Source: Mesoterricola sediminis (GTDB lineage Bacteria; Acidobacteriota; Holophagae; Holophagales; Holophagaceae). From it: a DNA stretch of 64,000 bases. The notes beneath the pieces were generated by a model. The model ran no database searches. It had not been told where the DNA came from and was given only the letters and a program-made list of their open reading frames with translations. The position numbers were made by a program, and so were the translations under genes. This document shows positions 4,691 through 63,079 of the stretch, in pieces; the stretch's first letter is position 1, and the number at the start of each line of letters is the position of its first letter. Location of the stretch: the NCBI RefSeq assembly GCF_030295425.1, contig NZ_AP027081.1:2835001-2899000 (forward strand), read 5' to 3'.

Positions 4691-6091
4691 GTGCTTGAAG
4701 CGGTCGGAAAAGCGGCAGGATGGGGACTTGGCCCCCTCCGCCTCGCTTGGCCCCTCCTGCTGGCCGCCACCCTCCTCGGGGCCCGGGAGCCGGCGCCCAC
4801 CCAGCTCCAGCTGGCGGCGGACGCCTCGGACGTCCTCTGGGGCCAGCCCGTGGAGGTGGTCGCCACCCTGGCCTCCCGGGAGCCGGAGGGGACCCGGCGC
4901 CCCCCCCTCACCCTGCTGGACGGGGGCCGCGTGGTCGCCATCCGCCCCGCCGGCTCCGGCCCCGCGGTGTTCACCCTGCCCCGGCTGGCCGAGGGCCTCC
5001 ACGTGCTGACCGCCCTCTACCCCGGCACGGCGACCCAGGCCCCCGCGGCCTCGGCCCCCCTGAGCCTGCGCGTCCGCCCCGCCCAGCCCCCCCCGCGCCT
5101 GGACCTGTGGATGCTCCCGGACGGCGCGGTCCAGGCGGCCCCCGTGATCACCCTCCGGGGACGCGCGGCCAGCCCGCTTGGCCAGCCCAGCGTCTGGGTG
5201 AACGGCGCCAAGGTCCCCGTGGACCCCGACGGCACCTTCGCCTGGGCCCTCCTCGGCCGGGAGGGGGCCAACCCCATCACCGTGGTGGCCCGGGACCGGG
5301 CGGGCCAGGAGACCCGCGCCACCCGCACGGTGACGGTCCGGGCGCGCGCCCCGCGCCTCTTCCTGGAGGACCTCGGGGACGGGGCAGGCACCCCGGACGC
5401 GGACCTGACCCTGGCCGGCGACGTCCACGCCCCCGGCACCCCCTCCGATTCCCTGCTCCTCACCTGCACCCTCAACCAGGGGGTCCCCTTCGCGGTGCCC
5501 CTGGAGGACAAGCGCTTCACCCTGCGGCTCCGCCTGGCCCCGGGGGCGAACAGCCTCGACTTCCGCATCGGGGATGGGGACGAGGCCGGCTGGGCCCACC
5601 GCACGGTCTTCCTCCGTCCCGGCCCGCTCCTGGCCTTCCCCACCCCGCGGGAGGACCGGGTCACGAGCCTGGAGGCCCTGGACCTGGTGGCCGCCACGGC
5701 CGCGCCCGCCCCGGGCCTCGCCGTGACCCTGCGGGCGCCGGGCCTCCACCAGGCCCTCGAGGCCGCCCCGGACCGGACGCAGGTGAATGGCACCATGAGC
5801 TTCGAGGGGGTCGGCCTCTACACCGCGACCCTGGAGGCCCCGGGCCCGGACGGCGTGCCCCTGCGCGCCCACCGGCAGATCATCCGGGCCGCCGCCCCCG
5901 TCTCCACCGCCTACGGGATGGCGGACGTGAAGCGCATCCTGGACTGCATCACGGGGCTGGCTGAAGCCACCCCCGACGAGGTCTTCGACTACGATCTGGC
6001 CCCCCTGGGCGAGGGGCCCCTGTGGGGCGATCACCAGCTCGGCGTCGACGACGCCGCCATGGCCCTCACCTTCGCCCTGGGCCTATGGTAG
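4691..6091 (+). CDS. Secreted Ig-like-repeat protein with dockerin-like C-terminus
   Basis: A 466-residue exported protein. After a hydrophobic signal (about residues 10-32) come beta-rich, immunoglobulin-like segments with repeated 'GxNxxxxxVxDxAGQ' and '...GANSLDFRIGDGDEAG' patterns, as in surface adhesin or Big-type domains. The last 60 residues change character. They contain YGMADVKRIL and then GDHQLGVDDAAMAL, resembling the two half-repeats of a type I dockerin, although the first calcium loop is degenerate. The start is GTG at 4691 after GGCGAGG. The stop overlaps the next gene's ATG (ATGGTAG), so the two are translationally coupled. Function unknown; a surface-assembled structural or binding role is an inference. 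Confidence 0.6.
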   Translation: MLEAVGKAAGWGLGPLRLAWPLLLAATLLGAREPAPTQLQLAADASDVLWGQPVEVVATLASREPEGTRRPPLTLLDGGRVVAIRPAGSGPAVFTLPRLAEGLHVLTALYPGTATQAPAASAPLSLRVRPAQPPPRLDLWMLPDGAVQAAPVITLRGRAASPLGQPSVWVNGAKVPVDPDGTFAWALLGREGANPITVVARDRAGQETRATRTVTVRARAPRLFLEDLGDGAGTPDADLTLAGDVHAPGTPSDSLLLTCTLNQGVPFAVPLEDKRFTLRLRLAPGANSLDFRIGDGDEAGWAHRTVFLRPGPLLAFPTPREDRVTSLEALDLVAATAAPAPGLAVTLRAPGLHQALEAAPDRTQVNGTMSFEGVGLYTATLEAPGPDGVPLRAHRQIIRAAAPVSTAYGMADVKRILDCITGLAEATPDEVFDYDLAPLGEGPLWGDHQLGVDDAAMALTFALGLW

Positions 6092-6591
6092 GGCCGCCCC
6101 TCCTCCCCTGGATCCTGGCGGCGGCGGTGGCGGCGGGTCCCGCCGCGCCGGCCCCGCCGCTCCCGCCGGGCCCTTACCGGCTGTGGCTCAACGCCACCTG
6201 GGCCGTTCCGCCGCCGACTCCCGTGACGGGCCTGGCCCTGGACCTCCAGCTCCCCCCTGGCGTCCTGGTGGCCGCCAACCCCGAGACGGACCGGGTGTTC
6301 GAGGACGCCCTGATCGCCCCCCAGGGCCGGCCCATCCTGGCCTCGGCGCGGTTCCAGCGCGCGCGGGGCCAGCTGGACCTCGCCCTGGTCAACCTCCGGC
6401 GGAAGGCCTGGGAGGGCCCCTTCGTGGCCGTGGACCTCCGCGTCCTCCCGGGCTTCCGCGTCACCGCCGCCGACCTCCAGGCCTCCGCGAACGTCGCCCT
6501 CCGCGGGGTCGCCGCCATCGATCTTGCCGGCACCACCTCCGTCGACCTCACGGCCGCGACCACGATCACGCTCCGCCTCGAACCCCGCTAG
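6085..6591 (+). CDS. Secreted cohesin-like beta-sandwich protein
   Basis: A 168-residue protein with a signal peptide (MVGPPLLPWILAAAVAAGPAA) and a single all-beta domain. The layout resembles cohesin-like domains: an early LALDLQLPPGV strand, a middle LDLALVNL strand, and a late AVDLRVLPGF strand followed by a short acidic tail region. Identity to classical cohesins is not obvious by eye, so this is a fold-level suggestion. It starts at the ATG overlapping the stop of the dockerin-like gene, which supports co-translation and a joint role. The TAG stop lies inside a long palindrome that also holds the stop of the converging gene. Confidence 0.5.
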   Translation: MVGPPLLPWILAAAVAAGPAAPAPPLPPGPYRLWLNATWAVPPPTPVTGLALDLQLPPGVLVAANPETDRVFEDALIAPQGRPILASARFQRARGQLDLALVNLRRKAWEGPFVAVDLRVLPGFRVTAADLQASANVALRGVAAIDLAGTTSVDLTAATTITLRLEPR

Positions 6592-6645
6592 CCATCCTGT
6601 ATTGGCCCCGCAATGAATGCGGGGCCAATACAGGATGGCTAGCGG
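6585..6645. terminator. Bidirectional terminator palindrome containing both stop codons
   Basis: Arms 6585-6612 and 6618-6645 are perfectly complementary (28 bp) around the five-base loop ATGAA. The left arm contains the TAG of the plus-strand gene (6589-6591) and the right arm the TAG of the minus-strand gene (6639-6641). The distal halves of the arms are not especially GC-rich. It would fold identically from either strand. Confidence 0.85.
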
Positions 6646-8423
6646 CCCACGCCTTCAACGCGGAACAGCTCGGAGATGCGGCGTTCGCAGGTGAGGGCGA
6701 GGGCGCCGCCGCCGGGGGTGGCCCAGACGGTGGGGATGGCCTGGTGGCCGGAGACGTCCGGCAGGCGGGTGGCGCTGCCGGGGGTCCGGGCGCCGGTGTC
6801 CGGGTCCAGGCGCGCCAGGGTCAGGGGCAGGGCCCAGGCGGGGGAGGCCACGAGCAGGCCCCGGCTGTCCGCCGTCCAGCCGACGACACGCTCGCCCTCC
6901 CGCAGGCCCCGCACCGGACGGGCGATGGCGCTGGGCGCCGCCGCCAGCAGGCGCCAGCCGCCGCCGGCCGCGGGGACCGCGAGGTGCTGGCCGTCGGGCG
7001 AAACCCGGGCGACCGCACCGGTGCCGTCCAGGAAGGGCCCCAGGGCGACGGGCGCCCCCGCCTCCGGCACCCATCGGTACCAGGCCTTGCCGGCCGGGCC
7101 CTGCGCCGCCAGGAGGAGGGCCTCGCCCGCCGGGTGAACGGGGCCCAGGGCCTGGAAGCCCTCGGGCAGGGACAGGACCTGGCCGCGCCCTTGGGCGGTG
7201 GGCAGGATGCAGAGGGTGCGCTGGCCCCGCGGATCCGAGGCCAGGAGGTGGCCCGCCTCCAGGTCCGCATCCCGGAGGGCGTCCCCCAGGCGCGGCTCCC
7301 GCACCTCGGGCCGCAGGTGGGCCAGCACGCACTGGTAGCGGTCGCCGGCCGGCCAAAGGGCGACGGGCCGGCCCTGGCCCAGCTGGGCGGGCGCCTCCTC
7401 CCCCTCCCGCCACAGGTAGCCCCGGTCCTGGGCCAGGCCTCCGCCCAGCACGGGGGATTCAAGGAGGAGGAGGGTGCGGCCGTCCGAGCTGAGCCCGGCG
7501 GCCTGGGTCCCCTCGAACAGGGAGAACTCCCGGGAGGTCCCGCCCCGGACCAGGATGACGCGGCGCCGGATCCGCTGGTTGGCCAGGAGGAAGCGCCCGT
7601 CCGGCGCCACGTCCAGGAGCTGGCGCAGGCCGTCGCCCCGCCAGATCAGCTTGCGCCCGCCCCAGCCGGCGACGGCCCACAGGGAGGTCTGGTCCCCCTC
7701 CCATTCGGAGATCCAGAGCCTGCCGTCGGGTCCCCAGGCCAGGCCGGTGGGCTGGGGACCCGGGGCCCCCGCGGGGCGGATGAGGAGCTCCCGGTCCCGG
7801 CCGTCCTCCCGCACCATGTGCACCGCCGTCCGCTCCGGCGACGTGGCGATGAAGGCGATTTGGCGGCCGGTCGGGTCCACCCGGAGGCAGGTGAGGGTCG
7901 TCTGGGCCGCGTCGGCCTCGACCAGCACCCGGCCGGAGGGATGCTCCAGGCGGAGCCGGCCGCCGGCGAGGCGGAGCCGGGCCCAGCCCGGCGCCCACCA
8001 GGCGGCATCCAGCACCCCGTCCCCCTCGGCCAGGGGTCGGCCGGCACGATCCGCCAGCTGCCCAGCCAAGAGGCCTTCCGGGCTCCGGCGCAGGTTCCGA
8101 AGGAAGGCCGGCTGGCCTTCGGGCGAGACCCCCACCACGCGGCTCGGGCCCGGGCCCAGGCCCCGGTAGCCGTCCCCGTCCGGGGCCAGGGCGAAGGATT
8201 CGGGCTCCTTGCCGCCCACCCGCACGGACACATAGACGGTCCGGCCATCCGGCCCGAAGAACGCCGATTCCAGGGAGCCCCGGGGCATGTCCAGCCGCAG
8301 GAAGGCTGGGGCAGGACGGGCGGGCATCATGTCCAGGATGGCCGCCCCCATCAGGGCCAGGGCCACCGCGCCCAGGGCCCACGGGGCCAGGCGCTGCCTC
8401 AGGTTCGCCCCGCCCTGCGTCAA
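6639..8423 (-). CDS. Membrane-anchored WD40/TolB-like beta-propeller protein
   Basis: A 594-residue protein with one membrane helix near the N-terminus (about residues 14-32, APWALGAVALALMGAAI). It is followed by repeated propeller blades of the PD40/TolB kind, for example FFGPDGRTVYVS, WGPDGRLWIS, LSSDGRTLLLL and VSPDGQHLAVP. No catalytic motif is visible. The start chosen is TTG at 8423, which overlaps the preceding gene's stop (TTGA). This makes it the third gene of an overlapping unit with the ATPase and the HTH protein. The topology suggests a periplasmic propeller that could act as a sensing or scaffold partner, which is inference. Confidence 0.7.
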   Translation of the reverse strand: MTQGGANLRQRLAPWALGAVALALMGAAILDMMPARPAPAFLRLDMPRGSLESAFFGPDGRTVYVSVRVGGKEPESFALAPDGDGYRGLGPGPSRVVGVSPEGQPAFLRNLRRSPEGLLAGQLADRAGRPLAEGDGVLDAAWWAPGWARLRLAGGRLRLEHPSGRVLVEADAAQTTLTCLRVDPTGRQIAFIATSPERTAVHMVREDGRDRELLIRPAGAPGPQPTGLAWGPDGRLWISEWEGDQTSLWAVAGWGGRKLIWRGDGLRQLLDVAPDGRFLLANQRIRRRVILVRGGTSREFSLFEGTQAAGLSSDGRTLLLLESPVLGGGLAQDRGYLWREGEEAPAQLGQGRPVALWPAGDRYQCVLAHLRPEVREPRLGDALRDADLEAGHLLASDPRGQRTLCILPTAQGRGQVLSLPEGFQALGPVHPAGEALLLAAQGPAGKAWYRWVPEAGAPVALGPFLDGTGAVARVSPDGQHLAVPAAGGGWRLLAAAPSAIARPVRGLREGERVVGWTADSRGLLVASPAWALPLTLARLDPDTGARTPGSATRLPDVSGHQAIPTVWATPGGGALALTCERRISELFRVEGVGR

Positions 8424-8950
8424 GGCCGGCGCCCCTGGGCGGCCTGGCACCGCCGCGCGTAGTCGGCCACCGTGGCCTCGGCGTCCACGCCCAGGGCCGC
8501 GAGGTAGGCCGTGAGGTAGCCCCGCACGATGACGGCGGCGCCGGGCAGGTCCTGGAAGCGCTCCGCCTCCAGGGCCGCCAGGAAGGGGATGCGGATGCTG
8601 GTCTCCTGGGCCAGGTGCTCCAGGGTGAGGCCCTGGGATTCGCGCAGGGCCCGCAGCGCCGGACCGTCCAGGATCCCCCGGGGCTCGGGGGCCCGGGGCC
8701 GGGCGGCGGGAGGCGGCGGGGGCGCCGGTTCCACGAGGCTGCAGAGCTCCTGGAAGGCCGCCTCGACCTCCTCCAGGACGCGGGCCCGGGCCTCGGGGCT
8801 GAACTCGTCCATGGACGGCATCGGGAAGGGGCTGTCCCCCCCGCCGTAGAGGGCGCGGAGGAAGGCGTGGGCCCTCCGGATCTCCTCCAGGCCCGCGGAG
8901 GCGTCCACCTCCAGGATCTCCCTGCACTTCGCCTCGCCCAGCCGGGTCAT
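8420..8950 (-). CDS. J-like plus RodZ-type helix-turn-helix protein
   Basis: A 176-residue cytoplasmic protein. The first 45 residues (CREILEV, LEEIRRAHAFLRALY) resemble a J-domain helical pair but lack the HPD loop. A proline-rich linker follows, then a RodZ-like HTH at about residues 90-160 with ALRESQGLTLEHLAQETSI and RGYLTAYLAALGV. RodZ HTH domains often bind cytoskeletal partners rather than DNA. The ATG at 8950 overlaps the ATPase stop (ATGA), and its own stop overlaps the next start, so the three genes are translationally coupled. No membrane segment is present, unlike true RodZ. Function unknown. Confidence 0.65.
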   Translation of the reverse strand: MTRLGEAKCREILEVDASAGLEEIRRAHAFLRALYGGGDSPFPMPSMDEFSPEARARVLEEVEAAFQELCSLVEPAPPPPPAARPRAPEPRGILDGPALRALRESQGLTLEHLAQETSIRIPFLAALEAERFQDLPGAAVIVRGYLTAYLAALGVDAEATVADYARRCQAAQGRRP

Positions 8951-47404: not shown

Positions 47405-48220
47405 TTGAGCAACCCCTGCGCCCTCCCCAGCCTCGCCCTGCCCCCCACCGAGGAGGACCTGCGGACCCTGCCGAAGCTCGAGGAGCGGATCCGGCGCCGG
47501 GTCGGCATGGCCGTCCATGAGTTCGGCCTGATCCAGGACGGGGACCGCATCCTCGTGGGGCTCTCCGGGGGCAAGGACTCCTGGGCCCTCCTGGACGTCC
47601 TCGAATCCCTGCGCCGCCGGGCCCCCATCCGCTTCGAGGTGCACGGGGCCACCATCGACCCCGGCTTCCCCGGCTACGACCCCGACCGCATCGCCGAGGT
47701 CTGCGAACGCATGGGGGTGCCCCACCGCATCCTCGGCGCCCCCATCGACACCCTGGTGCGCCGCAGGCCCAACACGACCCCCTGCGCCATCTGCTCGCGC
47801 CTGCGCCGCGGCGTGCTCTACTCCCACGCCAAGGAGAACGGCTTCACCAAGATCGCCCTGGGCCACCACCTGGACGACCTCATCGAGACCCTGCTCATCA
47901 ACCAGTTCTTCGAGGGCCGCATCTCCACCATGCCCCTGAAGCTGGTCAGCGACGACGGGGCCAACACGGTCATCCGGCCCCTGGGCACCTGCGAGGAGGA
48001 GGACCTGCGCCGCTTCGCCTGGCTCAAGGGCTACCCCTTCGTGCCCTGCGGCTGCCCCCTCTGCGGCGCCTCCGTCCTCGAAAGCCGCCGCGCCCAGATC
48101 AAGGCCCTCGTGGCCACCCTGAAGGAGAGCATCCCGGACCTGAAGTTCTCCCTCCTGAAGGCCATGAAGAACGTCAAGACCAGCCACCTCCTGGACGCGC
48201 GCCTCCCTCCGATCACCTAG
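47405..48220 (+). CDS. ttcA: TtcA-family tRNA 2-thiocytidine synthetase
   Basis: A 271-residue Fe-S tRNA thiolase of the TtcA/TusA-independent group. The PP-loop LSGGKDS is at residues 53-59, and the cluster motif PCAICSRLRRG has Cys127 and Cys130. YPFVPCGCPLCG adds Cys215, Cys217 and Cys220. It makes s2C32 in tRNA. Start TTG 47405 after GAGG. The TAG stop is part of the CTAG target into which the insertion element has landed; the reading frame is intact. Confidence 0.87.
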   Translation: MSNPCALPSLALPPTEEDLRTLPKLEERIRRRVGMAVHEFGLIQDGDRILVGLSGGKDSWALLDVLESLRRRAPIRFEVHGATIDPGFPGYDPDRIAEVCERMGVPHRILGAPIDTLVRRRPNTTPCAICSRLRRGVLYSHAKENGFTKIALGHHLDDLIETLLINQFFEGRISTMPLKLVSDDGANTVIRPLGTCEEEDLRRFAWLKGYPFVPCGCPLCGASVLESRRAQIKALVATLKESIPDLKFSLLKAMKNVKTSHLLDARLPPIT

Positions 48221-48237
48221 GCTGTGTTCGGAATCTA
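48221..48237 (+). repeat. Left terminal inverted repeat of the IS element
   Basis: Seventeen bases, adjacent to CTAG at 48217-48220. Two mismatches to the right end, at positions 2 and 11. Confidence 0.85.
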
Positions 48238-48308
48238 TAGATTAGATAAATAGTTAACTTGTACTCATACGTAAAGGCTCGTACACCACGAATTTTCCTG
48301 GGGTAACG

Positions 48309-49077
48309 ATGCCGAGACGTTTCCTGACCGATGCCATGTGGGCAAAGCTTGAACCGCTCCTTCCGCCAGAGCGTGGAGGGATGGGGCGATCCCGTCACCC
48401 CAACCGTCCCATGGTGGAGGCGATCCTGTGGAGGCACAGGACTGGGGCGCCGTGGAGGGACCTGCCGGAGGAATTTGGACCTTGGACAAGCGTGTACACG
48501 CGATTTGAGGCCTGGACCAAGCGCGGCGTGTGGCAAAGGATCCTGGAGTTCCTGCGCAAGGAAGCCGACCTGGAGTGGGTCATGCTGGATGGCACCATCC
48601 TTCGCGCTCATCAATATTCAGCAGGCAAAAGGGGGGGCTCTGGAACCAGGCGCTCGGACGATCTCGGGGTGGATGCTCGACCAAGATCCATTTGATCTGC
48701 GATGCCCACGGTAATCCTTTGGATTTCCTGGTCACTCCGGGGCAGTCACTCCGGGGCAAGCCCATGAAAGCCGGTCTGCTGAAGGATTGCTGTGCGGTTG
48801 GCAGGCAGAGTACGTGTCCGGAGATCGGGCCTACGATGGGAACCCGGTAAGGAAGGCGATCGAGGCCATGGGTGCGACAGCCGTCATCCCACCTCATCCC
48901 CGGCGCAAGAATCCGGCGGCCTGGGACTCACACCTATACAAGGCCCGCCATGCCATCGAGCATGGGTTCGCCAAGCTCAAACAGTTCAGGGCGCTGGCCA
49001 CCAGGTTCGACAAAACGGCGCGAAGTTTCTCAGCCCAGGTGGCTTTGGCCTGCATCGTGATCTGGCTGAGGCTATGA
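48309..49077 (+). pseudogene. IS5-family transposase, broken by a 14-bp duplication and a frame change
   Basis: Three consecutive reading frames together give a complete DDE transposase. Frame one (48309 to about 48630) starts MPRRFLTDAMWAKLEPLLPP and contains the first Asp in MLDGTI. Frame two starts at the A4G7 run (48627-48637) and gives ALGRSRGGCSTKIH and LVTPGQ. Frame three (about 48758-49077) gives the second Asp in SGDRAYDG and the Glu in KARHAIEHGFAKLKQF. The first switch is at a slippery run where family members can use programmed -1 frameshifting. The second is caused by a 14-base tandem copy (48731-48744 and 48745-48758); deleting one copy restores TPGQAHES. Probably inactive. Confidence 0.9.
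48731..48758 (+). repeat. 14-bp tandem duplication in the transposase
   Basis: GTCACTCCGGGGCA occurs twice back to back. Fourteen extra bases change the frame by -1, exactly the shift seen between the second and third transposase segments. Confidence 0.95.
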
Positions 49078-49110
49078 GCGGAGGGTGACAAGCGTTCCGG
49101 ATCCTCATTG

Positions 49111-49163
49111 ATCCTATGAAACGCGGAGGCGCGGAGGATCTCGCAGAGGGTCGCGGAGGAAAG
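49111..49163 (+). repeat. CGCGGAGG-rich inverted repeat, left copy
   Basis: Begins ATCCTAT and carries ACGCGGAGGCGCGGAGG, then CTCGCAGAGGGTCGCGGAG. The reverse complement of 49436-49488 matches it over the whole length with few differences, including a 25-base identical core. Confidence 0.9.
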
Positions 49164-49213
49164 CGCTCCTGGAACCTGCCACCTCCCAATGACACGTCCC
49201 AACGGGAGGCGTG

Positions 49214-49435
49214 ATGGGAAGGCATTGGGGAGAGGTCGACGGGGAGGATCATCCGCACAAGGAGATCACCCAGGCCATCATCGGGGAGGCCATCGAGATC
49301 CAGAAGGCTCTGGGGCACGGACTCCTGGAAGATCCCTACAAGGTCTGTCTGGCGCACTCCCTGAGACTGGCCGGCCATAAGGTGAAGCGGGAGGTTTTCC
49401 TGGATATCGAGTGGAGGGGGCTTGTGGGCTTGATC
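49214..49435 (+). pseudogene. GxxExxY-family protein, C-terminally truncated
   Basis: About 74 residues are recognisable: HKEITQAIIGEAIEIQKALGHGLLEDPYKVCLAHSLRLAGHKVKREV. The G-LLE-x-x-Y signature names the family; the core is GHGLLEDPY at about residue 36. GxxExxY proteins are about 125 residues and have a PD-(D/E)XK-like second half, which is missing. After WRGLVGLIL the frame runs straight into the right copy of the CGCGGAGG repeat and stays open without homology. GGGAGG lies upstream of ATG 49214. The function of the family is not known. Confidence 0.78.
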
Positions 49436-49488
49436 CTTTCTCCGCGAGCCTCAGCGAGATCCTCCGCGCCTCCGCGTTCCAATAGGAT
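49436..49488 (-). repeat. CGCGGAGG-rich inverted repeat, right copy
   Basis: Inverted partner of 49111-49163; it ends ...CCAATAGGAT, mirroring ATCCTAT at the left copy. The two copies enclose a 378-bp unit. 49489-49584 shows no gene and reads as ordinary element sequence. Confidence 0.9.
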
Positions 49489-49584
49489 GCTGCGAATGCG
49501 CGGCGCCATCAGGCACTGCAGCACAGACTCACTATTCCAGCTCCTCCATGCTCCGGCACGGATGGGTATTAGCCATTACTATCC

Positions 49585-49601
49585 TAGATTACGAACACAC
49601 C
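49585..49601 (-). repeat. Right terminal inverted repeat of the IS element
   Basis: Reverse complement GGTGTGTTCGTAATCTA, matching the left end at 15 of 17 positions. CTAG follows at 49602-49605. Confidence 0.85.
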
Positions 49602-49663
49602 CTAGTGCAGGCCGCCAGGGCCTTCCGGGCCCGGCCCACCTTGGCCACCCTCCCGTCCCGGCG

Positions 49664-62998: not shown

Positions 62999-63079
62999 CC
63001 TGCCCCCCGTCAGGAAGTATAAGGGATCGCCCCTGGCCGGACTAGACAGGGGCCGGGGGGCGTGGGTCAAACTAGGTGC

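What the first reader, a model, noticed from the sequence alone, without database searches (positions are those of the whole stretch)
6585..6645. 28-bp perfect palindrome holding the stop codons of two converging genes
The last codons of both genes are mirror images because each stop lies within an arm. Perfect complementarity over 28 bp with a five-base loop is longer than needed for termination, and 3' ends of two unrelated genes are constrained together. It could also be a mobile palindromic repeat (REP-like) that supplied both stops.
Basis: seen in the sequence. Interest (0 to 1): 0.5.

Follow-up and report, generated by a model that had tools for sequence, protein, structure and literature searches.

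The report
Tiny transposon parked between two genes
The perfect palindrome is one of about ten copies of a 55-base hairpin that looks like a stripped-down piece of an RNA-guided jumping element, and it appears to have jumped into the four bases where two facing genes once shared their stop signals, splitting them without harming either gene.

Summary
The palindrome is real (arms 6585-6612/6618-6645, 28/28, 5-nt loop). It is not an isolated terminator: it is one of 10 full copies of a dispersed ~55-bp repeat in this genome (window copy 6588-6642), edged by CTAG on both sides in 6 of 10 copies and on one side in 4. In 6 of 10 copies two facing genes both stop in the outermost CTAGs (2 directly, 4 across an abutting IS); a seventh is ambiguous. 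The arms match (18/20 here, 20/20 for copy 1495566) the left end of an IS1111-type (IS110-family) insertion sequence in a same-genus genome. That IS inserts at T^AG: at one junction two relatives keep the empty site, recR and its facing gene sharing one CTAG, and in the third genome the IS sits in it. Guide sequences in the IS non-coding region match their own targets in 13 of 18 elements. Best reading: a MITE-like, non-autonomous derivative of the IS1111 left end, inserted at CT^AG where two facing genes overlapped by their stops. RAYT/REP is rejected (no Y1 transposase found, no GTAG tag). No T-run terminator. Not shown: trans-mobilisation, a matching driver in this genome, an empty site for the palindrome itself.

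The parts
6588..6642 (.). 55-bp palindromic element with its two edge CTAGs; insert proper = 51 bp (6590-6640) under the CT^AG model
6588..6609 (+). left arm CTAGCCATCCTGTATTGGCCCC; first 20 nt 18/20 identical to the IS1111-type left end in G004
6610..6620 (.). 11-nt centre GCAATGAATGC (family centre read from the minus strand)
6621..6642 (-). right arm, exact reverse complement of the left arm
6588..6591 (+). left CTAG holding the stop (TAG) of gene A
6639..6642 (-). right CTAG holding the stop (TAG) of gene B
6585..6587 (.). CCG, pairs with CGG at 6643-6645; ends of the two genes, probably a chance extension of the palindrome
   Evidence: not shared by the other copies
6022..6591 (+). gene A open frame (189 aa as listed, no Pfam match)
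6639..8927 (-). gene B open frame (762 aa as listed, start uncertain, no Pfam match)
   Evidence: homologous regions in the stretches read from G001, G004, G005 and G014

Best explanation
The palindrome is a copy of a short, non-autonomous (MITE-like) mobile element made of two inverted copies of the left terminus of an IS1111-type (IS110-family, DEDD transposase, seekRNA-guided) insertion sequence around a small hairpin. It inserted at CT^AG. Genes A and B were convergent and overlapped by four bases, their TAG stops sharing one palindromic CTAG. Insertion there leaves a CTAG on each side, so both proteins end unchanged and the genes are pushed 51 bp apart. Shown: the dispersed repeat family, its CTAG edges, arm identity to the IS left end, T^AG insertion of that IS into a shared stop with empty sites in two relatives, guide-target matching in the IS. 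Inferred: that the palindrome derives from the IS end, that it moved in trans by such a transposase, and that the A/B junction was a shared CTAG before insertion.
For: Ten full copies in this genome, five in each orientation of the centre, 50-56 bp long, 8 of 10 of them 55. Stops: in 2 of 10 copies (window, 3651196) both facing genes stop in the palindrome's own CTAGs; in 4 more (1099989, 1260309, 1495566, 3626740) one stops there and the other in the CTAG on the far side of an abutting IS5-type element. G004 has six IS110-family elements 99.7-99.9% identical to each other's reference copy; the left end reads CTAGACATCATGTATTGGCC in 4 of 6, with one base changed in L197 and L199. It is 20/20 with both arms of palindrome copy 1495566 and 18/20 with both window arms. 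Extensions of 7 nt left and 3 nt right outside subterminal inverted repeats fit the published IS1111 layout. The same left end was found by a strict pattern in 16 of the 80 best IS relatives kept from a capped list, so the terminus belongs to the IS. A divergent G004 IS copy (L200) carries the arm plus a palindrome-like centre, 20/22 with the G004 palindrome. Empty sites: recR and its facing gene share one CTAG in G005 and G001; in G004 the IS lies in it and the facing gene ends TGA. Guides: 13 of 18 elements hold 7 nt or more of the complement of their own target, against 2.8% of mismatched pairs. Cargo between IS1111 ends moves when transposase and seekRNA are supplied (PMC11187229, passages).
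Against: No IS with matching ends was found in this genome: its one IS110-family match has no arm-like sequence in the 3.4-kb locus read. The palindrome has the left terminus at both ends, not left plus right; I know of no test of such an element. Palindrome targets share only CTAG, not the CTAGAGG of the G004 IS. No empty site was found for any palindrome copy; gene A matched only 2 other genomes of 77 in the family, at 33%. Four of 10 copies have CTGG or CAGG at one edge, 3 of 10 have only one gene stopping in a CTAG, and at 3089757 the second gene's CTAG lies beyond a truncated IS and about 480 bp of other DNA. For the G004 IS, the shared stop was seen in 2 of 7 other genomes read at recR, and at its NAD-kinase-like target 0 of 4 relatives have CTAG.
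Confidence: 0.64

Rival explanations
1. A MITE moved by the abundant IS5-family (IS427-like, name recalled) DDE transposase of this genome, with CTAG as duplicated target.
For: The IS5-type element also sits between two CTAGs at gene ends, e.g. window 48217/49602; PF13340 has 54 matches in this genome, some of them pieces; it directly abuts 4 of 10 full palindromes and 3 of 4 single-arm remnants.
Against: Its ends (GGCTGTGTTCGGAATCTA) do not resemble the palindrome's (ACATCATGTATTGGCC), which match IS1111-type left ends. Abutting is equally explained by a shared target.
Confidence: 0.15
2. An ordinary bidirectional transcription terminator conserved between converging genes.
For: Very stable hairpin; lies between convergent genes.
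Against: No terminator-like site by the T-run rule; arms and centre conserved at unrelated gene pairs; edges at CTAG (both in 6, one in 4 of 10 copies); arms match an IS terminus. A secondary terminating effect is not excluded.
Confidence: 0.08
3. A REP element moved by a REP-associated tyrosine transposase (RAYT).
For: Short dispersed extragenic palindrome.
Against: No Y1_Tnp (PF01797) match in this genome, although 14 of 37 genomes searched, G003 and G004 among them, have one; CTAG edges, whereas REPs are described with GTAG or CGTC at one end (PMC3733652, passages).
Confidence: 0.03
4. A host repeat that IS1111-type elements target or captured, rather than a derivative of the IS.
For: IS110-family and IS1111 elements are reported to insert in REPs (PMC1525189 and PMC5896051, passages).
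Against: In the six G004 copies the left terminus is constant but for one base in two of them, while the right flank varies, so it is not half of a split palindrome; the terminus recurs in IS relatives from other phyla.
Confidence: 0.07

Closest known systems
IS1111 group of IS110-family insertion sequences (seekRNA / bridge RNA guided)
   Same: Terminal sequence and T^AG junction; the G004 element fits the 7/3-nt extensions, subterminal inverted repeats and downstream non-coding guide region described in PMC11187229 (passages).
   Different: The palindrome has no transposase or guide RNA, and carries the left terminus at both ends.
MITEs (bacterial miniature inverted-repeat elements)
   Same: Short, dispersed, non-coding, inverted repeats that match the end of an autonomous element.
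   Different: Much shorter (51-bp insert) and almost wholly palindrome; the matching IS is of the DEDD, RNA-guided kind.
REP / REPIN elements with RAYT
   Same: Extragenic palindromes of about this size near gene ends.
   Different: No Y1 transposase match in this genome, CTAG edges instead of GTAG.
Coxiella QMITE2 and IS1111 (PMC5896051, passages)
   Same: A palindromic repeat associated with IS1111.
   Different: There a GTAG REP is the target of IS1111; here the arms are the IS terminus itself.

Membership tests
IS1111-derived MITE | Ends match an autonomous IS1111-type element | tested here: met
   Copy 1495566 20/20 on both arms, window 18/20 on both arms; other copies lower, down to 9/20 on the damaged right arm of 1099989
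IS1111-derived MITE | Has both a left and a right IS end | tested here: not met
   Both ends are of the left type (7-nt AGACATC mirrored), the IS right end has 3-nt ATC. So it is not filed as a standard mini-IS; that it works like one is inference
IS1111-derived MITE | Mobilised in trans | not testable with these tools
   Needs a transposition assay; no matching driver found in this genome
IS1111-derived MITE | Same target junction as the IS (CT^AG) | tested here: inconclusive
   CTAG at both edges in 6 of 10 full copies, at one edge in 4 of 10; IS empty sites show CT^AG, but no palindrome empty site was found
REP/RAYT | GTAG (or CGTC) tag at one end | tested here: not met
   CTAG at the edges
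REP/RAYT | Y1 (IS200-like) transposase in the genome | tested here: not met
   PF01797: 0 in the own genome; 14 of 37 genomes searched have a match
Intrinsic terminator | G+C-rich stem followed by a T-run | tested here: not met
   0 sites in 6300-6900
IS5-type MITE | Ends match the IS5-type inverted repeats | tested here: not met
   GGCTGTGTTCGGAATCTA versus ACATCATGTATTGGCC, compared by eye
Rfam RNA family | Score over the gathering threshold | tested here: not met
   8 matches with E up to 1, all microRNA hairpin models far below gathering

The most novel reading that the evidence does not exclude
A satellite of an RNA-guided IS: a hairpin made of two mirrored left ends, needing only an outside transposase and seekRNA, whose address is the shared CTAG of overlapping convergent stops. 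CTAG is depleted in this window (14 seen, 57 expected) and 6 of the 9 sites outside the palindrome and the IS end an open frame of 100 codons or more, so the guide in effect sends the element to a place that splits two genes and damages neither. The mirrored arm may arise by snap-back copying at the hairpin of the IS left end.
Probability: 0.35. Interest if true: 0.72.

Novelty: new variant of a known kind. Interest (0 to 1): 0.56.

Why it matters
If true, it is a natural non-autonomous partner of the RNA-guided IS1111/IS110 recombinases, shorter than the mini-IS ends used in the passages I saw of PMC11187229, and it poses a testable question: can two left ends alone be mobilised? It also shows how a four-base target can act as a safe address where CTAG is scarce and tends to survive at stop codons. 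In print I found IS1111 and IS110 elements that target palindromes, but no palindrome built from the ends of such an IS (searches; passages; open-licence library only).

Tried and rejected
REP/RAYT origin: rejected. T-run terminator: none. Rfam: only sub-threshold microRNA hairpins. Orthologous A/B junction: B-like regions found in relatives, gene A not beside them, so no empty site for this copy; gene A matched 2 other genomes of 77, at 33%. First joined-protein search for empty sites of palindrome copies (8 genomes): the pairs are mostly not adjacent in relatives; for the 1099989 pair both genes end in CTAG in G005 (an IS end beside each, on two contigs) and in G004 (another gene between). 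Palindrome pattern in genome contigs 0 (own or near records may be left out), in viral contigs 0, in plasmids 0. The own-genome IS110-family match is not a driver with these ends. Arm covariation (11 cells changed on both sides; covariation 0.158 against 0.080 +/- 0.019, 0 of 500 shuffles reach it) may be shared descent or arm homogenisation and is not used as proof of an RNA function. Rows dropped before counting copies: of the 25 pattern matches, 18 lie in the ten full copies, 4 were read as single-arm remnants (1081681, 2984608, 2061459, 3098223; the last with 3 mismatches) and 3 were dropped as unrelated (955673, 1753089, 3680886); at three mismatches the reversed control also matches (3 and 2), so 3-mismatch hits can be chance. 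The weak model hits at 2542124 (E 0.003) and in G013 (E 3.5e-4) were not counted as copies. On re-checking I lowered the count of copies with both genes stopping in outer CTAGs from 7 to 6 of 10, because the stretch left of copy 3089757 is a truncated IS plus other DNA, and the confidence from 0.66 to 0.64.

Full report
What is there. The arms 6585-6612 and 6618-6645 are exact reverse complements with a 5-nt loop. Gene A (+) ends EPR-TAG and gene B (-) ends VGR-TAG, each stop inside a CTAG, at 6588-6591 and 6639-6642. The next longest perfect hairpin in the window has 16 pairs.

It is a repeat family. A search of the window's own genome (one contig, 4.52 Mb) with this stretch hit four further places. 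A degenerate arm pattern with up to 3 mismatches gave 13 forward and 12 reverse matches against 3 and 2 for the reversed control pattern. Reading them gives ten full copies: 725531, 1099989, 1260309, 1495566, 2841588 (window), 3089757, 3626740, 3651196, 3664339, 3752124. I read four more as single-arm remnants: 1081681, 2984608, 3098223 and 2061459. Consensus: CTAG ACATCATGnATTGGCCCC TCATTCATTGC GGGGCCAATnCATGATGT CTAG, n being variable. The centre is asymmetric and occurs in both orientations, five copies each by my reading. Eight of ten are 55 bp, one 50 and one 56. A covariance model built from these ten copies, which therefore finds them by construction, matched 4 of 60 genomes including the own one: besides the ten copies, two places in G004, one in G005 and one weak place in G013 (strict filters, weak matches may be lost). 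The outer CCG/CGG of the window copy is outside the unit.

Where the copies sit. For each copy I asked whether the frame that ends at the outermost CTAG is long and gene-like on each side. In 2 of 10 (window, 3651196) both facing genes stop in the palindrome's own CTAGs. In 4 of 10 (1099989, 1260309, 1495566, 3626740) one gene stops in a palindrome CTAG and the other in the CTAG on the far side of a directly abutting IS5-type element. At 3089757 the right gene stops in the palindrome CTAG, while the left gene's CTAG is followed by a truncated IS (about 700 bp, 94%) and about 480 bp of other DNA, so it is left open. In 3 of 10 (725531, 3664339, 3752124) only one gene stops in a CTAG. These calls rest on frame length, third-position G+C and my reading of the proteins; names such as recR, cysS, gatC, ttcA, NAD kinase and SDR are recalled from sequence, not from a family search. 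One edge reads CTGG or CAGG in 4 of 10 copies: 725531, 3089757, 3626740, 3664339. CTAG is scarce in the window (14 seen, 57 expected from trinucleotides). Of its 9 sites outside the palindrome and the IS, 6 end an open frame of 100 codons or more on one strand; open frames are not proof of genes.

An IS shares the address. An IS5-family element (DUF4096 and DDE_Tnp_1) with ends GGCTGTGTTCGGAATCTA lies between two CTAGs, for example in the window at 48217 and 49602. It directly abuts four of the ten full palindromes and three of the four remnants. Its ends do not resemble the palindrome.

The arms are the left end of an IS1111-type element. In the same-genus genome G004 the single arm opens a longer element. 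Five further copies are 99.7-99.9% identical to the first. The element is 1749 bp from AGACATC to ATATC in five copies and 1745 in one. Its left end reads CTAGACATCATGTATTGGCC in 4 of 6, with one base different in L197 and in L199. It encodes an IS110-family transposase (PF01548, PF02371). It has inverted repeats ATGTATTGGCCTGnCA with a 7-nt extension on the left and 3 nt on the right, as published for IS1111 (PMC11187229, passages read). Palindrome copy 1495566 matches this left end 20/20 on both arms, the window copy 18/20 on both arms. One divergent IS copy (L200) also carries GGCCTCCCATCCGATGAGGGGC next to the arm, 20/22 identical to the corresponding stretch of the G004 palindrome at 1218431. 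In a scan of named genomes, 573 relatives of the transposase were confirmed and the best 80 kept. A strict pattern found the left terminus in 16 of those 80, 15 of them with T before it, and nearly all from Proteobacteria. So the terminus is the IS's own, and the palindrome most simply derives from it.

Empty sites. Joining the flanks of the G004 copies predicts a target YT^AG; at the recR copy both facing genes would share one CTAG. In G005 and G001 the same pair is intact and does share one CTAG, both frames ending there. In G004 the IS sits in it, recR still ends in CTAG, and the facing gene ends in TGA supplied by the IS right end. In the other five genomes read at recR this is not so: G002 has the facing gene nearby but recR ends GTAG; G003, G009, G014 and the own genome show no such junction. 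A second G004 target, an SDR-like gene, ends TTC CTC TAG in G005 and TTC CTC TGA in G004. At a third, NAD-kinase-like, target none of the 4 relatives read has CTAG. For the window, taking out 51 bp leaves one CTAG in frame for both genes; that follows from the two edges being alike and is not a test. No relative with this gene pair was found.

Guides. The non-coding region after the transposase holds ACCCTCTA in the six-copy element, whose targets read TAGAGGGT (4) or TAGAGG (2). In L200, in an otherwise conserved stretch, it holds GCTCCTA, and its target reads TAGGAGC. Over 18 elements, 13 have 7 nt or more of the complement of their own right target; mismatched pairs reach that in 2.8%. Six of the 18 are near-identical copies and L251/L252 are a pair from one genome, so the independent number is lower. 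Five fall short: L196 and L198 at 6, L265 at 5, L253 at 4, L258 at 3. This fits the seekRNA mechanism of PMC11187229 (passages).

What is missing. No driver with these ends was found in this genome: its single IS110-family match lacks them. The palindrome carries two left ends, not left plus right. Palindrome targets share only CTAG. No empty site for a palindrome copy was found. The nearest is the 1099989 pair: G005 has CTAG at both gene ends, each followed by another IS end on its own contig, and G004 has CTAG at both with another gene between. Mobilisation by an IS1111-type enzyme is therefore inference, at about even odds. That the palindrome is a dispersed insertion at CTAG is well supported.

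Other readings. No Y1 transposase match occurs in this genome, so REP/RAYT fails. No T-run terminator was found, though the hairpin is very stable and may still affect 3' ends. The source organism was not identified by any search.

Noticed in passing
window 48217-49605: An IS5-family element lies between two CTAGs; the gene before it (ttcA-like by eye) stops in the left CTAG. In G004 the corresponding gene shares an intact CTAG with a facing frame.
   Followed up: partly
G004 loci L195, L197, L199, L200; also L263, L265: IS1111-type elements often sit at a CTAG next to what looks like another IS's end (AGGGTGTTTTAG, GAGCCTGTC), and in several the guide matches that end, as if they target other ISs.
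   Followed up: partly
G005 C224 and C87/C258 (L039, L127, L128): Another IS-like end, TGTAGGTAGATCGAATC, also abuts CTAG at a palindrome and at a gene-end junction.
   Followed up: no
own genome, IS5-type copies: The distance between the two end motifs varies from about 1.0 to 1.45 kb between copies, suggesting internal deletion derivatives.
   Followed up: no
window 63042-63075: Two CTAGs 30 bp apart (CTAGACAGGGGCCGG...AAACTAG), possibly a decayed element.
   Followed up: no
G013 C1:2423659-2423704 (L040): Perfect hairpin GGACATCAGGGGGCCCC...GGGGCCCCCTGATGTCC beside a second hairpin; weak family match, perhaps unrelated.
   Followed up: no
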